Source: Diadophis punctatus similis
Lineage: Eukaryota; Chordata; Lepidosauria; Squamata; Dipsadidae
Direction of reading: 5' to 3'
Assembly: GCA_023053685.1 (NCBI GenBank)
Contig: JALIGW010000002.1
Location: forward strand, 42,910,720 to 42,974,719
DNA: 64,000 nt
Below are positions 3,476 to 62,009 of the stretch, piece by piece. Numbering within the stretch: the first letter of the stretch is position 1; each line of letters opens with the position of its first letter. Position numbers and translations under genes: made by a program. The notes under the pieces are model-generated. The model ran no database searches. It worked only from the letters and a program-made list of their open reading frames with translations, and was not told where the DNA came from.

Positions 3476-5152
<1,677 letters not shown>

Positions 5153-5162
5153 AAATAACATC

Positions 5163-5714
5163 TTGCCAGTAGAGCAAAAAGGCAACAAAAGAAGGAGCAG
5201 GGGCACAAAAGATCAGCTCCTAATTGACAAAATGATACTAGAAAACTGTAAGAACAGAAAAACGAACTTGAATATGGTCTGGATTGATTACAAAAAGGCG
5301 TACGACTCACTGCCACACAGCTGGATCATCAAATGCTTAGAAACTATTGGCATCAGCAAAAATATTACATCATTCACTGAAAAAGCGATGAAACAATGGA
5401 GAACTGTGTTGGCAGTAGGGAATGAGAACTATGGAATGGTTAATATCAAGAGAGGAATTTTTCAGGGAGATTCACTTTCACCCCTCCTCTTCATCATCGC
5501 AATGATCCCACTATCAGTAATCTTAAAAAAAATGAAACTTGGATACCAAATAGCCAAAGACGCTGAAAAAATTTCACATTTATTGTATATGGATGATTTG
5601 AAACTGTATGGAAAGTCAGAAATAGAAATCCAATCACTGACCAACACAGTCCTAATATTCAGCACAGATATCTCAATGCAGTTTGGCATGAAAAATGTGC
5701 CACTGTATCTATGA
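5163..5714 (+). pseudogene. R4-type reverse transcriptase, truncated and frameshifted
   Basis: The frame opens inside the RT domain ([14 protein letters not shown]) and contains [15 protein letters not shown] (palm motif A), [12 protein letters not shown] (motif B) and the catalytic YMDDLKLYG (motif C) near residues 141-149. The N-terminal part of the protein is missing because the copy is 5'-truncated. The frame ends at 5714. The homologous reading continues in another frame at 5711, and the point of change, near 5685, looks like a single-base deletion. The chosen start is only the first start codon in the frame, not a true initiation site. Confidence 0.88.
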
Positions 5715-16632: not shown

Positions 16633-18651
16633 CTACACTACTTCAGACAAATGGTTATCCAACATCTTCTTAAAAACTTCCAGTGTTGGAGCATTCACAA
16701 CTTCTGGAGGCAAGCTGTTCCACTGATTAATTGTCCTAACTGTCAGGAAATTTCTCCTTAATTCTAAGTTACTTCTCTCCTTGATTAGTTTCCACCCATT
16801 GCTTCTTGTCTTATCCTCAGGTGCTTTGGACAATAGCTTGACTCCCTCTTTTTTGTGGCAACCCCTGAGATATTGGAACACTGCTATCATGTCTCCCCAA
16901 GTCCTTCTTTTCATTAAACTAGACATACCCAGTTCCTGCAACCGTTCTTCATATGTTTTAGCCTCCAGTCCCCTAATCATCTTTGTTGCTCTTCTCTGCA
17001 CTCTTTCTAGAGTCTCAACATCCTTTTTACATCGTGGCGACCAAAACTGAATGCAGTATTCCAAGTGTGGCCTTACCAAGGCATTATAAAGTGGTATTAA
17101 CACTTCGCGTAATCTTGATTCTATCTCTCTGTTAATGCAGCCTAGAACTGTGTTGGCTTTTTTGGCAGCTGCTGCACACTGCTGGCTCATATTTAAATGG
17201 TTGTCCACTAGGACTCCAAGATCCCTCTCACAGTTACTACTGTTGAGCAAGGTACCACATATACTGTACCTGTGCATTTTGTTTTTCTTGCCTAAATGTA
17301 GAACCTTACTTTTTTCACCATTGAATTTCATTTTGTTTGATAGCGCCCAATGCTCAAGTCTGTCAAGATCCTTCTGTATCTTGAGCCTATCTTCTGGAGA
17401 GTTGGCTATTCCTGCCAGTTTGGTGTCATCTGCAAATTTGATGAGTTCCCCATCTATTCCCTCATCCAAGTCATTGATAAAGATGTTGAAGAGTACTGGG
17501 CCTAAAACAGAGCCTTGGGGTACTCCACTGCAAACTTCCCTCCATGTAGATGCAGTTCCATTGAGCACTACACGTTGAGTGCGGTTGGTTAGCCAGTTTT
17601 GAATCCATCTGATGGTGTTGCTGTCCATCCCACATTTTTCTACTTTATCTAGAAGTAGGTTATGGTCTACTTTATCAAATGCCTTACTGAAGTCCAAGTA
17701 AACCACATCGACAGCATTCCTCTGGTCCACTAATTTTGTCACTTTGTCAAAGAATGTAATAAGATTAGTCTGGCATGATCTGTTTTTGACAAACCCATGT
17801 TGGCTTTTGGTTATTACTTTGTTTGCTTCTAGGTGTTCATTGATTCGTTGCTTGATTATCTTTTCCAGAATCTTCCCTGGTATTGAGGTCAGGCTGATAG
17901 GTCTGTAGTTTCCTGGATCTGTTTTTTTCCCTTTTTTGAAGATGGGAACTACATCAGCTCTTTTCCAGTCCTCTGGCAGTTCCCCGGTGCTCCAGGATCT
18001 TTGAAAGATATAGTTCAGTGGTTCTGAGATCTCATCTGCCAGTTCCTTCAGAACCTTGGGGTGTAATCCATCTGATCCTGGTGATTTGAATTCGTCTAGG
18101 GTAGACAGGTGTTCCTTTACCATTTTCTTCCCTATTTTAACTTGTGTTCCTAATATGTTTTTTGTGATGCTGTTTTTGATAGGTTGGACTGTTTTTTCCC
18201 TTTGTGTAAAGACAGATGCAAAATACGTGTTAAGTAGCTCTGCTTTCTCCCTGTTGCTTGTCACCTTCTTGCCACTTTCTCCCTGCAATGGACCAATTGT
18301 TTCCTTGACTTTTTTCTTGTTTTTAATATGTTGGAAGAAGCTTTTTTTGTTACTTTTTACTTTTGTCGCAAGCCTTTGTTCATTGTGAGCCTTAGCTTTC
18401 CTCACTTCATCTTTACAGGCTCGGGCTATTTGCTGGTATTCTACCTTAGTTATTTCCCCTTCTTTCCACTTTTTATACTTGTCCTGTTTGTCTTTCAATT
18501 TGTCAGAGAGTTCTTTATGCAGCCATGCTGGTTTCTTTTGAGACCTATTATTTTTCTTCTTCATTGGTATTGTGCTAGTCTGGGCTTTTATAATCTCACT
18601 TTTCAAAATTTCCCAAGCTTCTTGAGTTGTTTTCCCCTTGAGGATTCTCAT
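16633..18651 (-). pseudogene. CR1 ORF2 reverse transcriptase, long open frame
   Basis: 672 codons with no stop. The reading contains NYRPISLTSIPGKILEKIIK (RT motif 1-2 region), VVYLDFSKAFDKVDH (motif A), SGVPQGSVLGPVLFNIFIND (motif B) and KFADDTKLAG (motif C, catalytic FADD). The C-terminal domain ends VFKKMLDNHLSEVV. It would copy the element's own RNA at a nicked target (target-primed reverse transcription). Upstream, an in-frame TGA at 18654-18652 separates it from the endonuclease part, and a frameshift lies near 18950. The ATG at 18651 is therefore just the first one after that stop, not the native start. The RT itself looks intact, implying a young copy. Confidence 0.93.
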
Positions 18652-22545: not shown

Positions 22546-22572
22546 AACAGAATTGGAAGGGTCCTTGGAGAG
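22546..22572 (-). repeat. Very short CR1 3' end next to the DIRS element
   Basis: The sequence agaattggaagggtccttgg matches the last bases of CR1 seen at 7138 and 16578. It stops abruptly where DIRS sequence begins. Confidence 0.5.
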
Positions 22573-23034
22573 ATGGGGCGTTGGTCTTACCTGATACGCT
22601 TCTTCTCATGGGGTGGAGACAGCATCCAGGAATGGGTTGACCTCGTCTACTCGCTGATTGGACTGAGTCTGTCAGAATATTGTTAAGACAGTCCTCTGTT
22701 GCTAGGGCTCCCCAGCATTGACGAAGACGAAGTGACAGACTCGACGTGTCTTGATATTTGTCGTGCAGCCTCACAGAAGCATAGTAAGCTTGTCCCTGCC
22801 AGGTGTGTTGGTCATGATGAACAGGCCAGGCTGTCTTTAGGGAGGGACTGGATGCTGTCTCCACCCCATGAGAAGAGACGAATGCCCCTTCTCCATAGTG
22901 GGTGGAGACAGCATCCAGGAATGGGACATACCAAAGCTGGCTTGTCCTCATGGATGGGTCGCAGCCTGATCTGACCTACTCCGGTCTGTGACAACGCTCT
23001 GCAGCACCCATCATCCAAACACTTCCTCTGCGGA

Positions 23035-23775
23035 TGCAAACCTGTCCATTTTATAGTTCTTAATAAAAGGAGAGGGAGAAGACCAGGTGGCTGCTCAACA
23101 GATTTCTTCCAGAGAAGCCTGTATTGCCCATGCCACCGCCGTGGCTGTGCTCCTGGTAGAATGAGCGGTAATGCGTCCAGGAGCCGGGACACCCTGAAGC
23201 TGGTATGCTTTTGTTATGCATGCCCTTAGCCATCTACCAATCATGGAAGCTGACACCTTTCTGCCCAAGGAAGTGGGCTAGAATGACAAAAATAGAGACT
23301 CTGACTTCCTAAAGATGGCTGTCCTGTTTATGTAAATCTTGAGAGCCCTCCAATGTCCAAAGTGTGCCATTTCTGTTCCAGGGTATGAACAGGAGCCGGA
23401 CAGAAGTTCGGCAGGATCAGCTCCTGCGCCCTGTGGAACCATGAGCACACCTTGGGGATAAAGGAGATATCCAGTCTTAACACAACTCTGTCGGAGTGAA
23501 AAATGCAGAGGTCCTCCCTCACAGAGAGGGCCTGTAGCTCTGAACTTCCTGGCTGATGTAATAGCCACAAGGAATGCCACCTTGAAAGTAAGATACTGGA
23601 GGGTGGCAGAGCGCAAAGGTTCAAATGGGGAACTGGTGAGTGCATTCAAAACTCTGGACAGGTCCCAGGTGGGGTACCTGTGCACCACTGGAGGTCGCAG
23701 GTTAGATGCTCCCTTTAAGAAGCCTCTCACTGTGGGATGTTGGGTCAGGGTCTGAAGCTTCCCACTTGACAGCAC
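23035..23775 (-). pseudogene. DIRS tyrosine recombinase, frameshifted
   Basis: Reading from 23775: SGKLQTLTQHPTVRGFLKGA, SNLRPPVVHRYPTWDLSRVL, PFEPLRSATLQYLTFKVAFL, VAITSAR. Frameshifts follow, then WRALKIYINRTAIFRKSESL. Further on (about 23225-23035) comes ITAHSTRSTATAVAWAIQAS, with the HxxR-type box of tyrosine recombinases, and PFIKNYKMDRFASAEEVFG, which may contain the catalytic tyrosine. The enzyme would insert the circular DNA copy by site-specific strand exchange. Several frameshifts make this copy inactive. Confidence 0.85.
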
Positions 23776-28972: not shown

Positions 28973-29096
28973 CGTTCTCCATAGTGGTGGCTATAGCATA
29001 CAGGAATGGGTTGACCTCATCAACTAAGCTGATTGGAATGAGTCTGTCAGAGCTGTTGAGGACACCCCTCCATTGCTATCCCTTCCAGCTTTTTGA
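28973..29096. repeat. Left inverted terminal repeat of DIRS copy B
   Basis: Inverse-complementary to 35612-35721 at high identity. Its outer part, CCGTTCTCCATAGTGGTGG, also matches the inverse of 35440-35475. Confidence 0.85.
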
Positions 29097-29763
29097 CTCA
29101 GTCACTCAGCTTGGACAGAAGTGCCCAACATTCCTCCGTTATTGGACTGTTTCTCTTCTGGATGCTATCTTCACAGATTCATCAATTAGTGAGTTGTGGA
29201 TCCAGTGGACTCCCAAAGTCATCGGGTTGAGTCGTTGGAGGGTGTCCCCGCAGCGAGAGCTTTGGCTCAGGCTGCTATCCATTAGGGAAACAGGCTGTCA
29301 TTATCATCTGCGACTCCCTCATTCTGTTAAAATTTTCAGAGCGAATTTGAACTAAACTACTGATCTACCGCTCTGACAGTACAGTGGAGCTTCGCGCTCC
29401 CGAAAGACAGCCGGGGACTCTGAGCTTTGGCCCTGCAGCAACAGAGGAGTTCCCTCCCAATCTGACAGTTGGCGGCACATTCCCGAAAGACAGCCGGGGA
29501 CTCTGGGCAAACAACTGAGGGGCCTTACGCTCACAATCTGACAGTTGGTGGTGCCATTAGTGGAGCTTTTGCGCTCCCAATCAGACTAACGGGCTGAGGC
29601 AGAGCTTTGCGCTCACAAGCCTCTTTGAGCAGCACATGGGGCTTTGCCTCCAGCTTGCTAGTGAGCTCTGCGCTCCTGCCCTTTGCTAAGAGGGAGAAGG
29701 GGCCTTTCGCTCCTCTCCTTAGAGTGGAGCTTCCGCGCTCCCAAAGTGCCGTGGCAAGCCCCC
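29097..29763. repeat. DIRS copy B 5' leader with short internal repeats
   Basis: GC-rich and non-coding. Contains duplicated units around CCCGAAAGACAGCCGGGGAC (29398 and 29483), AATCTGACAGTTGG (29459 and 29535) and repeated GGAGCTTNNGCGCTCCC. Short open frames on both strands have no recognisable domains. Confidence 0.6.
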
Positions 29764-30171
29764 TGTCAGGGTTCCAAATAGCATCCAAAATTAAATCAGA
29801 GTCCAAGGCAAAGTATTCCTCAAAGTTCCAATTTATTAATAGAGCCATGTTGGCACATCGAGGTGAAACCCGAATCTGAAGTCCTCCGGGTTTCACCACC
29901 CAGTTGAAAGTTCAAGTCCTTGCCCCCACACCCACAAATTCATTACATTGTCCAATCTTCTATTGCCATGCTGGCAGAGTCCAGCTATCTCCTTCTGTGC
30001 AGGTGCAGAGACAAAGGAAGACCTTGGCTTTCTAGAAAGAATTTGTTATGGCTACATACTAACAACCTCATACAATCCCCCCTCCCATTTTCCCACAGTA
30101 GAAAATGCATAGTAAAATAGTATGAAGTGTGGCAGGCCTAAGCTCCCAAATAAAATGGCTTTGGCCTGACA
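29764..30171 (-). mobile_element. Solo LTR, 408 bp
   Basis: Bounded by TGTCAGG and CCTGACA, a perfect 7-bp inverted terminal pair with TG...CA ends. Read on the minus strand it has an AATAAA polyadenylation signal (TATTAATAAATTGG) in its last quarter, which sets the orientation. The flanks are ccccc and ccacc, a 4/5 target duplication. No internal region or second LTR is nearby, so it is probably the product of LTR-LTR recombination. The superfamily (Ty3/gypsy or retrovirus-like) cannot be told from the LTR alone. Confidence 0.75.
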
Positions 30172-30486
30172 CCACCATTGTAAGAATCCAGCGCTGCATT
30201 TTTACAACGCGCTAGAGCAGCGGGAGGCTTGCTGGGAATCAGAGGTTTCCCCTCCTAATCCCTGGAGGAGCTCACGCTCCTCACGGCGCAGGTTGCTGGG
30301 TCTCGGAGGCTTTCCTCCTCCTACCCTTGAGGAGCTTGTGCGCTCCCATTTATTGTTGCAACCTCCTTTCTCCTCGGCGGCCGTTTTTTATGCCAGGACT
30401 ATAGGTAAAAGCCCACGTGTTCTGAAGCTCTGTCAGACACCTTTTTATTCTAAATCCATTTGGCACCAACAGCAATTGGCTTCAAA

Positions 30487-31767
30487 ATGGCAGATTCAGC
30501 CCCCGCAGCTGCCAAGGCAAGCACATGAAAAGACAAAGCTGACTCTTCAGCTGGGGCTAGGACCAAGGGAGGGTCCAAATATCATAAGACATCTGTAGCA
30601 GCCCCCAAAGGTTCCAAGGCAGCCCAGAAGGCTGAACAGCACAGGCATAAGACTCTGGACAAACTCTGCAATAAGGCTGTCAGTAGACATAGCCAACTGC
30701 CTGAAACATCAGAAGAGCCTACCCAGCTCCACAGCAGGCATTCCCAGGCCTTGTCGCCTGAGCGGGCTGGAGTCAATATCTCTCCACTAGGCTCCTTATT
30801 ACCCATTACTACTATGGGGCCCAGTTCCTGACTTGCATGGACCTGAGAAGAGCGTTCACCAGCCCTCCAGGGTCAGAGCATTACCTGAGGCCACGTCCCC
30901 CCTCCCACGGCGGCTGGCCTCAGACCACAGGCAGAGTCAGGGCCATTTATTCAGGACAACATGCATTCTATTATTGCTGAGGCCATTTGGCAAGGAATAT
31001 CGGCAGGGTTGCAGCAATCTAGGCTCGACTATTCAGTGGTCTCCGGAGACTTCAGCCGCTCTGGCCAATGCATTGCTCCCCACCTTCCAGGGGATATGGA
31101 TCCTCCACCCGACCCAGGCTCACCTGTCTCCTCCCATGAGTAACTATCTCAGTTTTCTGAGGAGGAGGATCCAAGAGATTTGGACCTCTCAGACGACGAG
31201 GGCATGTTACCTGACCAGCCGTCATTTGTGGGGCTCTTCCAGCCCAACCTCTTTAAGTCCTTGTTGTTCAAGGCAAAAAATGCAGCTGGCCTTGGGTCTA
31301 AGAGCGCAGAGCCAGAACCAGAGATGGACTCCAACATGACTGATCCTCTTTTTTTGGAGCATACATCTGAGGCAGAAGTCATTCCTTTGCCAAAGCTCTT
31401 TGTCGATTTAATCCAAAGACAATGGATCTCCCCCGGGGTGGGACCCAACCCGTCTACCACTGACAAAAGGCTCTATAACGTGGCGCCGGACCTAACAAAG
31501 GTCCTTCAGGTCCCAACGATTGATGCCCCAGTGGCGGCTTTACAGTCCTCCTCCGCTATTCCGGGCGAACCGGAGGACTCTTTGTGACCGGAGGACAGCA
31601 GGTCAGAACAGATGCTACAGAGAGCGCATCAGGTGGCAGCGTGGGCTATTAGAGCTTCGACGACTGCATCATTCCTCAACAGGGCCTCCTTGATCTGTTT
31701 CCACCAGATGCAGGAAAGTGTCCCGGCAACAGATGTCAGACTACAAGACATCAATAAGCTCATAGCT
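30487..31767 (+). pseudogene. DIRS gag remnant, 5' part
   Basis: One plus-strand frame runs from ATG at 30487 (MADSAPAAAKAST) to 31767 with no frameshift but several stops (near 30526, 30829, 30844, 30883, 31141 and 31588). The coherent pieces are NMHSIIAEAIWQGISAG, LDLSDDEGMLPDQPSFVGLF, GPNPSTTDKRLYNVAPDLTK, VLQVPTIDAPVAALQSSS and VAAWAIRASTTASFLNRASL, ending QDINKLIA. The 'DK-LY-VAPDL...DAPVAAL' and 'WAI+AST-ASF-NRASL' blocks are typical of squamate DIRS Gag. The L1-like insertion at 31768 splits the frame immediately after KLIA. Confidence 0.8.
31753..31767. repeat. Target-site duplication, left copy
   Basis: The 15-mer aataagctcatagct is repeated exactly at 34584-34598, bracketing the L1-like insertion. 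It lies in the DIRS gag codons for NKLIA. Confidence 0.95.
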
Positions 31768-32430
31768 TCCGGTTTTGGCTCCGACGGCGTCGCTGGCGCT
31801 CCTCGCAGGGCGTCCTTCTAACCTCCTGTAAAAGCCGCCAGAACAGCTCTCTGGCGGCTTGAAAATCTCTCCCCGGGTGAAGGGGAGAGATGAGAGCGAG
31901 ACAGTTGGGGTAGAGCCCCCCTAGTGTCCTAAAAGCCAACTTAGGGCGCGTAGGGTGAGGGCTCCCCTGGTAGCCTGTCTGCTGCTCCGGGAAGTCGGAA
32001 GCCTCCGCTTAAAGCGGAGCAAGATGCCGCGACCACCGCTGCTGCTGCAAAGCAAAGTACAACTATTTTAAATTTATAGAGAGCAGCCAGAGAAAGGCAG
32101 GAGTCCAGAAGGGCATTAGTTTTGTCTTTAACTCCACTGCTGGATTTTACCTTGGAAGCAACAAAGTAGCTTAACAAGGAAGAAGCAACAATATGGCGAT
32201 TGGAGAATTGGGTGTGGTAGAGAAAGTTATTTTTGCTTTGTTACCAGCCTTTTCCTTTGGAAACCTTTGATTTGAAGAATGATTTCTTCTCCTTTTTTCT
32301 CCTGAATTAATTTACAGCTTTATAAAGGATAAAATTTAACTGGCTTTGGACTTGGAAAGAACTTTTTTTTAAGTAAGGATCTGGGCTTTTTTTCCTCTCC
32401 TCTTTGTCTTTCTTTTTTGAAAATACTGAA
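31768..32430 (+). promoter_or_regulatory. 5' UTR and likely internal promoter of the HAL1-like element
   Basis: GC- and CpG-rich in its first 300 bases (CGACGGCGTCGCTGGCGCTC and CTTAGGGCGCGTAGGGTG). It includes a hairpin AGCCGCCAGAACAGCTCTCTGGCGGCT at about 31833-31859 (arms AGCCGCCAG and CTGGCGGCT). L1 elements carry an internal promoter in this position. Promoter activity here is inferred from location and composition only. Confidence 0.5.
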
Positions 32431-33515
32431 ATGGCTTCTAAACTAAAGACTGTAGTGAATAAAAGAACTGAGTACTCTTTTGATCATATTTTAAAGAAGC
32501 AATCCATGCCTGATTTAACATTATCAAAGTCTTTAACACCTGAGAGTTTATTTAATACTTTGAAAATCATGAAAAATGAGCTGATTTTGGAATTTAACTC
32601 AAAAATTGCTGAAATAGATAAAAAATGCAGGCTGCTATGGAGAAGATGAATTTACAACTGAGAGCGGATGTGGTGAAAGTTTGTAAAGGATTAGCAGTAA
32701 ATATGGAGATTTTGGAGAAGGATTTGGAAAAAAATAAGCAAGATTTGACAACTTCAGAGAAATACATAACCAAGGTTCAAAATGATATAGTAAATTTGGA
32801 AACAGAGGTGATGATGTCCCAATTTAGAGAGATGAAATTTGCCATAAGAGTGAGGGGCTTGAAGGAGGAAAAATTTGAAAATTTGAAAGGAAGAATGGCA
32901 GAGGCACTGGAGCAGGTGTCTGGAATGTCTAAAGATGAATTGGTTATGCAAATTGATAAGATATATAGAGCTAATTCCTGGTATGCAAAACAAAACCACT
33001 TGCCAAGGGACATTGTAATATATTTCACTACTAGAGTTCTGCGGAACAGAATTACACAGGCGACTTTTAAGAATAATCTTCAGGTAAATGGTCAGGAAAT
33101 AAGGATATGGAAAGAAATTCCTTCCAAGATGCTTAAAGCTAGAAGAGAATATTCCTTCCTGGTCGAGGAACTAAAAACACGGAATTTACAATACAAATGG
33201 AATGCACCAACAGGAGTAATCGTGAAATTTTTGGGAAAAAGATATGGACTTAACACAATAAAGAAAGCTACAGAATTCTACATCAATGTTTTAGAGGCTG
33301 ATATTTCTAAAATTCCAGTGGACAGAAGCATGGAAATAATGGAGGAGGAGAAGAAAAACCCAGATATACGTGGTCAAGAGGAAATAATTTCAAAGATTCA
33401 AAGTGATTGGCAGAGCCAGATAGATGTTTGCGACGTGGAAAAGGAGACGGAGGATTGGGATCAGATGAGAGCTGAATCGACAGATTTGAAATTGTCAAAG
33501 GACAGATGGTGTTGA
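32431..33515 (+). pseudogene. L1-type ORF1 protein, one frameshift
   Basis: The first frame starts at ATG 32431 (MASKLKTVVNKRTEYSFDHI) and reads to about 32620 (EIDKK). The second frame takes over at 32625 (MQAAMEKMNLQLRADVV) and runs to the TGA at 33515. Together they give about 360 residues, near the usual ORF1p length. The middle is a heptad-rich coiled coil (MEILEKDLEKNKQDLTTSEK, IVNLETEVMMSQF), which would form trimers. Next is an RRM-like part (FAIRVRGLKEEKFENL), and then a C-terminal domain with KMLKARREYSFLVEELKTRN. ORF1p is an RNA-binding chaperone that coats L1 RNA. The only defect seen is a one-base difference in an A6 run at the frame switch, so it is a near-intact, young copy. 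Confidence 0.85.
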
Positions 33516-34440
33516 AACTTATAGGATGGTTGGAAAGATGAACAAGATTGTAATCATTTTTTTTCTTCTCTTCTTTTATTATTATTATAACATTTTCTTT
33601 TGATGGTATTTTCTTTTTAGATTATTTTATATATATACCATATATTTTGGAGTTATAAATTTGATATAGTGTAATATTATGTTATTAATATTTTGAGGAT
33701 TTTGGGATTAAGTATAAGGTTTTTGAGGCATAAGGGGTTGGTTCTTACTCTTTTTTATTATTATTACTATATATTTTGATTATTATTACTATTATTATAT
33801 ATAATATATATTTTGAAGTTGATACCTCAAGGTATAGTAATATTGTTACTAATGTGTTTGATTTTATGATTTTATGTTTAGAAGAAATGTTGGGTTGACT
33901 GAAAGGGGGAGGAAAGGTTTACTTTTGTTCCTCTTTTATTTTTATTTCTTATTTTTTCTTATTTTTTTTCTTTTTCTTTTTCTCTTTCCTTTTTATTATC
34001 ATTAGTTTATAGGTAATTTTAGGATTAAGTTTAAGGTTCTTGTTTTATTACTAACATTATAATTATATATCTTGATTATTATTAAGTTAATAATATGATA
34101 TAGTGTAATATTATGTTATTAATACTTTGTGGGATTTTAGGATAAAGTCTAAGGTCTTTGAGGTATGAGGGGTTAGGTTTTACTTCTTTTTTATTGTTAT
34201 TATTATTATATATATTATATATTTTGAAGTTGACATACTGTAATATTGTTATTAATATTGTGTTTAATTTTATGATTTTAGGATTAAGTTTAAAGTTTTA
34301 GAGGTATAAGGGGTTATTTTTTAAATATTCTTCTTCTGTTCATGTTTTGAATTTTAAAAAAAAATTGGAGTTAAAGATTTTTTTAAAAAAAAGTGGAAAT
34401 TAAGAATTTGCTTTAATTTAATTTAAATTTATTTTATTGA
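33516..34440 (+). repeat. AT-rich diverged tandem repeats in the ORF2 position
   Basis: Units carrying GATATAGTGTAATATTATGT, TATTAATATTTTGAGGATTT and GGATTAAGTATAAGGTTTTT, then GAGGCATAAGGGGTTGG, recur at about 33660, 34085 and 34230, with a partial copy near 33810. No open frame of length and no RT or endonuclease motifs were seen. Confidence 0.75.
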
Positions 34441-34463
34441 ATTTTATGCCCTGTACTTTCTCT

Positions 34464-34530
34464 GGGAAGTCCGGGGGGAGGGGGGGAGGGGGAGGGGGTG
34501 GGTTGGGGGTAGGAGGGAAGGGGGGGAGAA
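34464..34530 (+). repeat. G-rich 3' UTR tract, G-quadruplex potential
   Basis: At least eight runs of three or more Gs in 67 bases on the plus strand, immediately upstream of the 3' end. A polypurine G-rich tract in the 3' UTR is a known hallmark of L1 elements and supports the assignment of this insertion to the L1 lineage. Confidence 0.85.
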
Positions 34531-34583
34531 AAATGAAAAAAAATTGTACTTTGTACTTATAAAACTTTTTGAATAAAAAAAAA

Positions 34584-34598
34584 AATAAGCTCATAGCT
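34584..34598. repeat. Target-site duplication, right copy
   Basis: Exact copy of the 15-mer at 31753-31767, after which the interrupted DIRS gag frame resumes. Confidence 0.95.
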
Positions 34599-34730
34599 AC
34601 AGTTCAATTCTCTGCAGATGCGACCTTCAACGCTGCCAGATTTCCATCTAAATCCATCGGATCTACTGTAGCAGCCCGCCATCTGCTCTGACTGAAACAT
34701 TGGCAGGTGGATGTTCACTGGGGCCCCTTA
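34599..34730 (+). pseudogene. DIRS gag remnant, 3' part after the L1-like insertion
   Basis: Reading resumes as TVQFSADATFNAARFPSKSI, GSTVAARHLL, stop, LKHWQVDVHWG. This is the continuation of the gag C-terminus after QDINKLIA. Just beyond, the reading changes into the recombinase, marking an internal deletion of RT and RNase H. Confidence 0.8.
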
Positions 34731-35380
34731 CGAGCCATTGCGGTCAGCCAGCCTGCACCACCTTACCTGTAAACTGGCGTTCCTTGTGGCCATCACATCA
34801 GCCAGGAGAGTGTCTTAGCTGGCCGCTCTGTCGGTAAGGAAAGACTTGTGTGTTTTTCACAAGGATAGGGTGGTTTTGCGTTTGGATCCCTCCTTCGTCC
34901 CCAAGGTGAACTCTTGATTCCACCGGGCACAAGAGCTGATTCTACCTAACTTTTGCCCAGAACCAACCCACCTCTTAGAGAAAAGGTGGCACACCTTGGA
35001 CATGAGGAGGGCCCTCCACATCTACATCAAACGGACAGTCACCGTAAGGAAGACAAGAGTCCTTATTTATTGCTTTCCAGCTGGCCACATTGAGCAACAG
35101 TGTTCCCTTCGACAGTGGGTCGATGGTTGCGATCTACCATTGCAAAGGCCTACGAACTACAAGGTCTTCAGCTACCAAGGGGAATTACCGCTCATTCTAC
35201 CCAAAGTGCAGCCACGACTACAGTTTGGGTTATGCAGGCCTCTATCGAGGCGGTCTGTCGCGCAGCTACCTGGTCCTCCCCGTCCATTTATTAGACATTA
35301 TAAATTGGACATCTACACCTCTGCGGAGGCGGCATTCAGCAGACGGGTACTTCAAAGAGTTCACGAGGACCAGGGGTGAT
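34730..35380 (+). pseudogene. DIRS tyrosine recombinase of copy B, degenerate
   Basis: Reading: PYEPLRSASLHHLTCKLAFL, VAITSARRVS, stop, LAALSVRKDLCVFHKDRVVL, RLDPSFVPKVNS, stop, FHRAQELILPNFCPEP, HTLDMRRALHIYIKRTVTVR. After frameshifts it continues GITAHSTQSAATTTVWVMQA, then RAATWSSPS and PFIRHYKLDIYTSAEAAF. It aligns throughout with copy A (23035-23775). The HST-R box has glutamine in place of the catalytic arginine. Stops, frameshifts and this change make it inactive. Confidence 0.85.
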
Positions 35381-35765
35381 TGGACCAGACTACAGCCCAC
35401 CTGTAAGGACAAGCCAGCTTTGGTATGTCCCATTCCTGGATGCTATATCCACCACTATGGAGAAGGGCCGTTGGTCTTACCTGATAGGCTCCTTCTCGCG
35501 GGGGTGGATATAGCATCCAGCCCTACTCTGAAAGCAGTCTGGTTGGAGATCGGTAGGAGGAGAACCTTACTTCATAGACTTTTGGCACATCAGGTCTGTC
35601 GCTTCGTCTTCGTCAAAAGTTGGAAGGGATAGCAACGGAGGCGTGTCCTCAACAGCTCTGACAGACTCATTCCAATCAGCTTAGATGACGAGGTCAACCC
35701 ATTCCTGGATGCTATATCCACCCCCATGAGAAGGAGCGTATCAGGTAAGACCAACGCCCCTTCCC
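35381..35765. repeat. DIRS copy B right arm and inverted terminal repeat
   Basis: Includes two oppositely oriented copies of a GGATGCTATATCCACC / GTTGGTCTTACCTGAT module (about 35438-35520 and 35700-35760) and the inverse of the left end (35612-35721). DIRS elements use such complementary end segments to form a circular intermediate. Confidence 0.8.
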
Positions 35766-60672: not shown

Positions 60673-61649
60673 GCTGAAGAAGCCCCGGAGCCCCGCCGCC
60701 AACCTGCGTCTCCTGCTGGGAAGGAGCCTCTGTCGCTGTCTCTCGCTGGGTTCCAGCCACCAGACTGAGTCCCTGACCGCGGCACCGGCAGGGTTAATGC
60801 ATATGGGAGAGGAGAGAGAGCGCTACCGCCGCCGCTGCTACTTTCACCGCTTTGATATTTCTTTGGTGGGCGCGTGCGGGAGGGACCATGGAGCAGAGGC
60901 GCCCGGCAGCTTAAGGCAAGAGGCGGGTGGGAGACGCGGGTAGGAGCCTGTCACCGCCGCCGCCACTTCTGGCATCCCCACGCCTCTCACCCCGCTTGCC
61001 GGGTGCCTCTGCTCAGCGGTCCCTCCTGCGCAGGCCCACCAAAGAAATATTGGAGCAGCGCAGCAGCGGCGGTAGCGCGCTCTCTCCTTCCCTCCCATGC
61101 AGGGAGGGAAGGAGAGAGCGCGCTACCGCCGCCGCTGCTACTTTCACCGCTCCGATATTTCTTTGGTGGGCGCGCGCGGGAGGGACCATGGAGCAGAGGC
61201 GCCCGGCAGCTTAAGGCAAGAGGCGGGTGGGAGATGCGGGCAGGAGCTACCGCCGCCGCTGCGCTGCTCCAATATTTCTTTGGTGGGCCTCCGCAGGAGG
61301 GACCGCTGAGCAGAGGCACCCGGCGAGCGGGGTGAGAGGCGTGGGGATGCCAGAAGTGGCGGCGGCGGCGACAGGCTCCTGCCCGCGTCTTCCACCCGCC
61401 TCTTGCCTTAAGCTGCCGGGCGCCTCTGCTCCATGGTCCCTCCCGCGCGCGCCCACCAAAGAAATATCGAAGCGGTGAAAGTAGCAGCGGCGGCGGTAGC
61501 GCTCTCTCTCCTCTCCCATACGCATTAACCCTGCCGGTGCCGCGGTCAGGGACTCAGTCGGGTGGCTGGAACCCCGCGAGAGACAGCGACAGAGGCTCCT
61601 TCCCAGCAGGAGACGCAGGTTGGCGGCGGGGCTCTGGGGCTTCTTCAGC
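60673..61649. repeat. 404-bp CpG-rich inverted repeat with a third partial copy in the loop
   Basis: 60673-61076 and 61246-61649 are inverse copies with few differences (landmarks GCTGAAGAAGCCCC, GGGACTCAGT, ATTTCTTTGGTGGGC, GCAGCTTAAGGCAAGAGGC). The 169-bp loop repeats part of the left arm in direct orientation (61128-61245) and is entered by a 49-bp palindrome at 61075-61123 (arms GCGCGCTCTCTCCTTCCCTC). Confidence 0.9.
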
Positions 61650-61721
61650 CGCTTGGCTGGAGAACGGCGGGGATGTGGCCATGGCCGTTTTTTAGCTCCC
61701 CCCGTCCCGGCTGAACGCCGC

Positions 61722-61785
61722 CATTTGGGTTATTTTTCCCTCTGTGCATGCGCGCGCATGCACAGAGGGAAAAATAACCCAAATG
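61722..61785. repeat. 64-bp perfect palindrome
   Basis: Two 32-base arms meet at GCATGCGC|GCGCATGC with no spacer; outer ends CATTTGGGTTATTTTTCCCT and its inverse. A longer imperfect extension pairs CCCGTCCCGGCTGA (61701-61714) with TCAGCCGGGACGGG (about 61794-61807). Confidence 0.95.
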
Positions 61786-62009
61786 ATTGTGGTCAGCCGG
61801 GACGGGAAAGCGGTGATTGTGTTCAGCCGGGACGGGAAAGCGGGCAGGAGAAGCTCCGCGCCGCAACCGCCGCCAGTTCCATCGGCTATACGCCGAAGGA
61901 CTGGCCCGGGCGAACCGGGAGGATTTCACCCCTGCTGCGAGCCATATGCAGTCATCAAAAGAGCCACATCTGGCTCGCGAGCCATAGGTTCCCGACCCCT
62001 GGCTTACAG

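What the first reader, a model, noticed from the sequence alone, without database searches (positions are those of the whole stretch)
31753..34598. ORF1-only, full-length L1-like element (candidate reptilian HAL1)
Seen: an exact 15-bp target duplication, a GC-rich leader, a nearly intact L1-type ORF1, no ORF2, a G-rich 3' UTR and a poly(A) end. Known: mammalian HAL1 'half-L1' elements have this layout and use L1 machinery in trans. Inference: an independent half-L1 lineage arose in this squamate, in which an AT-rich repeat spacer occupies the ORF2 position. Because leader and tail are both present, this is not an ordinary 5'-truncated L1. It could equally be a one-off internal deletion, so copy number is decisive.
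Basis: partly seen in the sequence, partly recalled or inferred. Interest (0 to 1): 0.88.

Follow-up and report, generated by a model that had tools for sequence, protein, structure and literature searches.

The report
Reptile jumping gene missing its engine
This is a young copy of an L1-type jumping gene, most likely from a lizard or snake, that carries only the first of the two usual genes, so it probably borrowed the copying enzyme of another element; whether it belongs to a whole family of such elements could not be checked.

Summary
A 2.8-kb retrotransposed copy (31768-34583) lies between exact 15-bp target duplications, inside an older repeat. It has a GC-rich, strongly folded leader, an L1-type ORF1 with one frameshift, no detectable ORF2, a 0.9-kb T-rich spacer with diverged internal repeats, a G-rich tract and a short poly(A). 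The ORF1 protein matches human L1 ORF1p in sequence (E 1e-6) and predicted fold (E 9.5e-11). Its nearest named relatives are snake proteins, so squamate is likely.

An amplifying half-L1 (HAL1-like) lineage is only partly supported. The decisive copy-number test failed: the genome search did not complete in 19 tries. Indirect evidence favours a lineage. The longest spacer repeats are about 27% diverged, although ORF1 has no stop codon (at most about 5% decay since insertion), so the spacer predates the insertion. ORF1 sits on a long branch and lacks a C-terminal motif found in 11 of 15 snake-side relatives. But a full L1 with this 3' region that lost ORF2 once would look the same. The composition changes about 33 nt after the ORF1 stop, leaving room for the first codons of an ORF2.

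Probable independent half-L1: a new member of a known kind.

The parts
31753..31767 (+). left target-site duplication AATAAGCTCATAGCT
   Evidence: exact direct repeat with 34584-34598
31768..32040 (+). GC-rich, CpG-rich, strongly folded leader (5' UTR, presumed promoter region)
   Evidence: 62% GC; CpG o/e 0.80; RNA fold of 31768-32060 z = -5.93, 0 of 200 shuffles as stable
32041..32430 (+). second, AT-rich part of the 5' UTR
   Evidence: 35.5% GC, one CpG
32431..33515 (+). L1-type ORF1, about 361 codons, one frameshift within 32622-32646
   Evidence: phmmer to human L1 ORF1p 1e-6; profile 1.1e-10; fold match to 2yko 9.5e-11
33516..33547 (+). short post-ORF1 stretch with ORF-like composition; an ATG at its end opens MNKIVII
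   Evidence: composition change point 33548; translation; likeness to an ORF2 start is recalled, not tested
33548..34463 (+). T-rich spacer with about five diverged copies of a unit of roughly 140 bp (some partial), in the place where ORF2 would be
   Evidence: no Pfam match to ORF2 domains
34464..34526 (+). G-rich tract with a G-quadruplex pattern
   Evidence: pattern match
34527..34583 (+). 3' end with AATAAA at 34572 and a short poly(A)
34584..34598 (+). right target-site duplication

Best explanation
A young copy of an ORF1-only, non-autonomous L1-type retrotransposon of a squamate, most likely from a half-L1 lineage. Proposed working: the GC-rich leader drives transcription; the RNA makes its own ORF1 protein (coiled coil, RRM and CTD), which coats it; an ORF2 protein from a full L1 binds the poly(A) end, nicks the target and copies the RNA by target-primed reverse transcription. 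Shown here: ORF1 identity and predicted fold, lack of detectable ORF2, target duplication, poly(A), nested insertion. Inferred: promoter role, borrowed ORF2p, and the existence of a family.
For: Exact 15-bp duplication, poly(A) and restored frame at the empty site show L1-type insertion. ORF1 is an L1 ORF1p by sequence and fold. None of 37 fragments after ORF1 matches an ORF2 domain, and the region is 50.5% T, whereas lizard L1 averages 43% A and 24% T (PMC7140322, passages). ORF1 has no stop codon, giving a 95% bound of about 4.7% decay since insertion, but the spacer repeats differ by about 27% in the three longest self-alignments, so the spacer existed in the source long before this insertion. 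ORF1 has the longest end branch of its 13-row snake-side group, 1.61 against a tree median of 0.3, and lacks the C-terminal QRxTR motif found in 11 of the 15 snake-side relatives P0001-P0015, and the VGGA motif found in 9 of 15. These fit a separate lineage.
Against: Only one copy is known. No parent or sibling could be fetched. The old spacer and odd tail could equally belong to an unsampled full-length L1 family. A search with the ORF1 tail alone found no protein, so nothing shows that the tail is shared. The QRxTR motif is absent from all 9 gecko-side or distant relatives P0016-P0024 as well, so its lack need not be a loss; and the tree tool warns that the place of so long a branch is unsure. 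About 33 nt after the ORF1 stop keep ORF-like composition and end in a possible ORF2 start, as a simple deletion would leave. The 5' end is not verified.
Confidence: 0.57

Rival explanations
1. One-off: the source is an ordinary full-length squamate L1 whose long T-rich 3' UTR is the 'spacer', and this copy lost ORF2 by an internal deletion or splicing in the RNA, or by template jumping during insertion.
For: Single copy. The composition border lies just past a possible ORF2 start codon. Human L1 RNAs are known to be spliced and then inserted, though the spliced forms described lie in the 5' UTR and ORF1 (PMC5860796, abstract).
Against: It needs a loss that starts within about 33 nt of the ORF1 stop and removes all ORF2 sequence recognisable by Pfam. 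No AG-ended exon border is seen at 33548, though the exact joint is unknown. The unusual ORF1 tail and long branch are not explained by it, but would be if the parent family were simply unsampled.
Confidence: 0.33
2. A processed retrocopy of the mRNA of a host gene that was domesticated from L1 ORF1 (like L1TD1 of mammals): 5' UTR, coding region, 3' UTR, poly(A).
For: The layout is also that of an mRNA. One snake gene model joins RING and TRAF-type zinc fingers to an L1 ORF1 (P0007), though that may be a gene-model artefact.
Against: The 3' end has a G-rich tract just before the poly(A), which is usual for L1 3' UTRs (recalled). ORF1 shows the plain L1 ORF1p domains and no host domain above a Pfam cut-off. 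No host gene was identified, but none was searched for.
Confidence: 0.06

Closest known systems
HAL1 / half-L1 of mammals (Smit 1999; Bao and Jurka 2010, both seen only as citations)
   Same: ORF1 only, poly(A), target duplications, dependence on L1 enzymes (PMC5322556 and PMC5753468, passages)
   Different: Squamate-type ORF1, not mammalian; 0.9-kb T-rich repeat spacer; copy number unknown (nearly 2,100 HAL1 copies in human, PMC5322556)
Squamate L1 (ORF1 relatives in the snakes Ahaetulla, Pituophis, Erythrolamprus, Micrurus and Vipera; more distant in the gecko Sphaerodactylus)
   Same: ORF1p with RRM and CTD; the start MASK is shared with 4 of 24 relatives
   Different: No ORF2; ORF1 tail lacks the QRxTR motif of 11 of 15 snake-side relatives. 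Whether those relatives come from two-ORF elements was not seen either.
SpIREs (spliced integrated L1 copies of human, PMC5860796, abstract and section list)
   Same: Internally shortened L1 copies with insertion hallmarks
   Different: In the described ones the lost part lies in the 5' UTR and ORF1, not ORF2

Membership tests
half-L1 (HAL1-type element) | encodes an L1 ORF1 protein | tested here: met
   one frameshift in this copy; the Pfam L1 model alone is below its cut-off
half-L1 (HAL1-type element) | no ORF2 | tested here: met
   Pfam scans of all 37 open fragments of 20 aa or more, six frames, 33480-34583; composition unlike lizard L1
half-L1 (HAL1-type element) | poly(A) tail and target-site duplication | tested here: met
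half-L1 (HAL1-type element) | multi-copy family sharing the ORF2-less structure | not tested
   The genome search did not complete (19 calls, last 88); no second copy in the window; no confirmed relative in viral or prokaryote contigs
half-L1 (HAL1-type element) | 3' end shared with an ORF2-bearing partner L1 | not tested
   no squamate L1 DNA could be fetched
mammalian HAL1 families in the strict sense | ORF1 from a mammalian L1 lineage | tested here: not met
   of the 24 ORF1 relatives found, 18 are named and are snakes or a gecko, 6 come from unnamed assemblies; human ORF1p scores 31.9 bits against 177 for the best snake
HDV-like 5' ribozyme element | double-pseudoknot ribozyme at the 5' end | tested here: inconclusive
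   no such Rfam match at E up to 10; own pattern scan 0 hits, run without a positive control

The most novel reading that the evidence does not exclude
An independent half-L1 lineage arose in squamates. Its ORF1 evolves fast with a new C-terminal tail, ORF2 has been replaced by a growing and diverging tandem-repeat spacer, and a folded CpG-rich leader heads the RNA; it has persisted long enough for the spacer repeats to diverge by about a quarter.
Probability: 0.45. Interest if true: 0.55.

Novelty: new member of a known kind. Interest (0 to 1): 0.42.

Why it matters
If a family is confirmed, half-L1 elements would have arisen outside mammals as well. Losing ORF2 while keeping ORF1 would then look like a repeatable route for L1, which bears on the open question of why a parasite of ORF2p should keep its own ORF1. 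Squamate genomes, which hold an unusually broad range of transposable elements that appear active together (PMC6050309, passages), would be a good place to test this.

Tried and rejected
Own-genome copy search: 19 identical requests to the genome search, all unanswered ('busy or cannot be reached'). ORF1 searches of viral contigs and prokaryote genome contigs: candidate stretches, but no relative confirmed. ORF1 tail alone against the protein database: 10 candidates, no match. Rfam on the window (no match) and, permissively, on 31700-32450 (8 matches, best E 0.76, all far below gathering scores, judged chance). HDV-type ribozyme pattern on the leader: 0 hits, no positive control. Codon-usage score of the ORF1 tail: near zero, uninformative. 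Pfam Transposase_22 on the window ORF1 is below the cut-off (16.1 against 22.4 bits); the L1 assignment rests. Literature: 10 searches, all but bearing on half-L1 or reptile L1; no squamate half-L1 was seen among the titles and abstracts listed, but the lists are capped (for example 20 of 2,646 and 25 of 337) and the library lacks key papers (Bao and Jurka 2010 not held), so nothing is claimed about absence from print.

Full report
What is there. Between exact copies of AATAAGCTCATAGCT (31753-31767 and 34584-34598) lies a 2.8-kb insert. Such a match is rare here: 6 of 20,000 random stretch pairs at the same distance share an exact 15-mer. When the two flanks are joined across one copy of the duplication, one frame is open for 90 codons across the site, the other two for 20 and 24, so the insert landed in what looks like a formerly coding repeat. 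Part of that repeat has a second, 68% identical copy at 22572-23630 on the other strand. I call it DIRS-like from memory; Pfam gave no match to its pieces. The insert ends in AATAAA and 11 A's. The target is TC|AATA, a loose fit to the usual L1 nick site (recalled). This is target-primed reverse transcription of the L1 type.

The leader. 31768-32040 is 62% GC with CpG o/e 0.80, a likely CpG-rich promoter. As RNA, 31768-32060 folds at -145.8 kcal/mol, z = -5.93, with 0 of 200 shuffles as stable. No Rfam family reaches its gathering score, and the 8 permissive matches are weak, best E 0.76. The fold is unexplained.

ORF1. It starts at 32431 with MASK, as in 4 of 24 relatives, and stops at 33513-33515. 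A single frameshift between 32622 and 32646 splits it. The 296-aa second part matches human L1 ORF1p in the PDB at E 1e-6, and a profile of 18 sequences does so at 1.1e-10. AlphaFold2 gives a long helix, an RRM-like and a CTD-like part at mean pLDDT 79.9; residues 234-296 are below 50. Foldseek's first 12 matches are all human LINE-1 ORF1p, best E 9.5e-11. The Pfam L1 model alone stays below its cut-off; of the 18 aligned proteins, 9 match it at E up to 0.1.

Relatives. Single-sequence search gave 3 proteins and the profile search 24: 18 named ones from snakes (Ahaetulla, Pituophis, Erythrolamprus, Micrurus, Vipera) and a gecko (Sphaerodactylus), and 6 from unnamed assemblies. The best identities are 48% (P0015, unnamed) and 46% (P0005, Ahaetulla; P0008, unnamed). 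In a tree of the window protein with 21 of the 24 relatives (P0002, P0003 and P0009 left out as near-duplicates), the window protein falls with the snake-side group (13 rows, 97/100), on the longest end branch of that group, 1.61; two distant rows outside it are longer. Its place within the group is not resolved, and the tool warns that so long a row is placed unsurely. Of the 15 snake-side relatives P0001-P0015, 11 carry the tail motif QRxTR and 9 carry VGGA; the window ORF1 has neither, and nor do the 9 remaining relatives P0016-P0024. A search with the window tail found nothing.

After ORF1. The base composition changes at 33548, about 33 nt past the stop. From there to about 34463 the strand is T-rich (33516-34460 is 50.5% T). 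It holds about five degenerate, partly incomplete copies of a unit of roughly 140 bp. The three longest self-alignments are 73-74% identical, the best scoring 158 bits against at most 46.4 in 200 shuffles; pairs of hand-set units are 53-82% identical. Lizard L1 averages 43% A and 24% T (PMC7140322), so the spacer does not look like ORF2 in this orientation, and all 37 translated fragments of 20 aa or more from both strands gave no ORF2 domain in Pfam. A G-rich tract with a G-quadruplex pattern follows at 34464-34526.

Lineage or accident. The copy is young: no stop codon in 1,074 ORF1 bases, where 5.9% of substitutions would make one, bounds decay at about 4.7%, if decay has been neutral. The longest spacer repeats differ by about 27%, so they were made long before the insertion, in the source; T-rich repeats can change faster than other DNA, so no date is given. 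That speaks against a spacer born with this insertion. It does not say whether the source carried ORF2. The clean lack of ORF2, the unusual ORF1 tail and the long branch favour a separate ORF1-only lineage. Against it stand the single copy, and the ORF-like 33 nt after the stop, ending in ATG AAC AAG ATT GTA ATC (MNKIVI), which might be the first codons of an ORF2. That likeness is recalled; I had no squamate ORF2 to test it.

What could not be done. The scannable collections are viral and prokaryotic and gave no confirmed relative. The host species was not identified; squamate rests on the ORF1 relatives.

Comparison. HAL1 of mammals encodes only ORF1p, arose several times in mammals, is flanked by target duplications and depends on L1 enzymes (PMC5753468 and PMC5322556, passages). 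This element works like one as far as anatomy goes. It is not a member of the mammalian families, and membership of a half-L1 family of its own is untested. Hence: probable independent half-L1, confidence 0.57; one-off loss of ORF2 0.33; retrocopy of a domesticated ORF1 gene 0.06.

Noticed in passing
31768-32060: The leader RNA is far more stable than shuffles (z -5.93), with several GC-rich hairpins and no Rfam family at gathering score.
   Followed up: partly
protein P0007 (Pituophis gene model, 576 aa): RING and TRAF-type zinc fingers joined to an L1 ORF1 in one predicted protein: a host fusion gene or a gene-model artefact.
   Followed up: no
about 28975-35763, and 22572-23630: The insertion target is an older repeat, DIRS-like from memory, with a 68% identical partial copy on the other strand and a 119-bp, 91.6% identical inverted piece at 28975-29093 and 35615-35732.
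   Followed up: partly
16636-18651, minus strand; 5010-5711, plus strand: Two other reverse transcriptase regions (RVT_1, 4.1e-38 and 3.4e-18), LINE-like but not L1-type as far as I recall their motifs.
   Followed up: no
60673-61806: GC-rich block of large inverted and direct repeats, up to 97% identical over 404 bp.
   Followed up: no
33548-34463: About five diverged copies of a unit of roughly 140 bp inside a retrotransposon spacer; origin unknown.
   Followed up: partly
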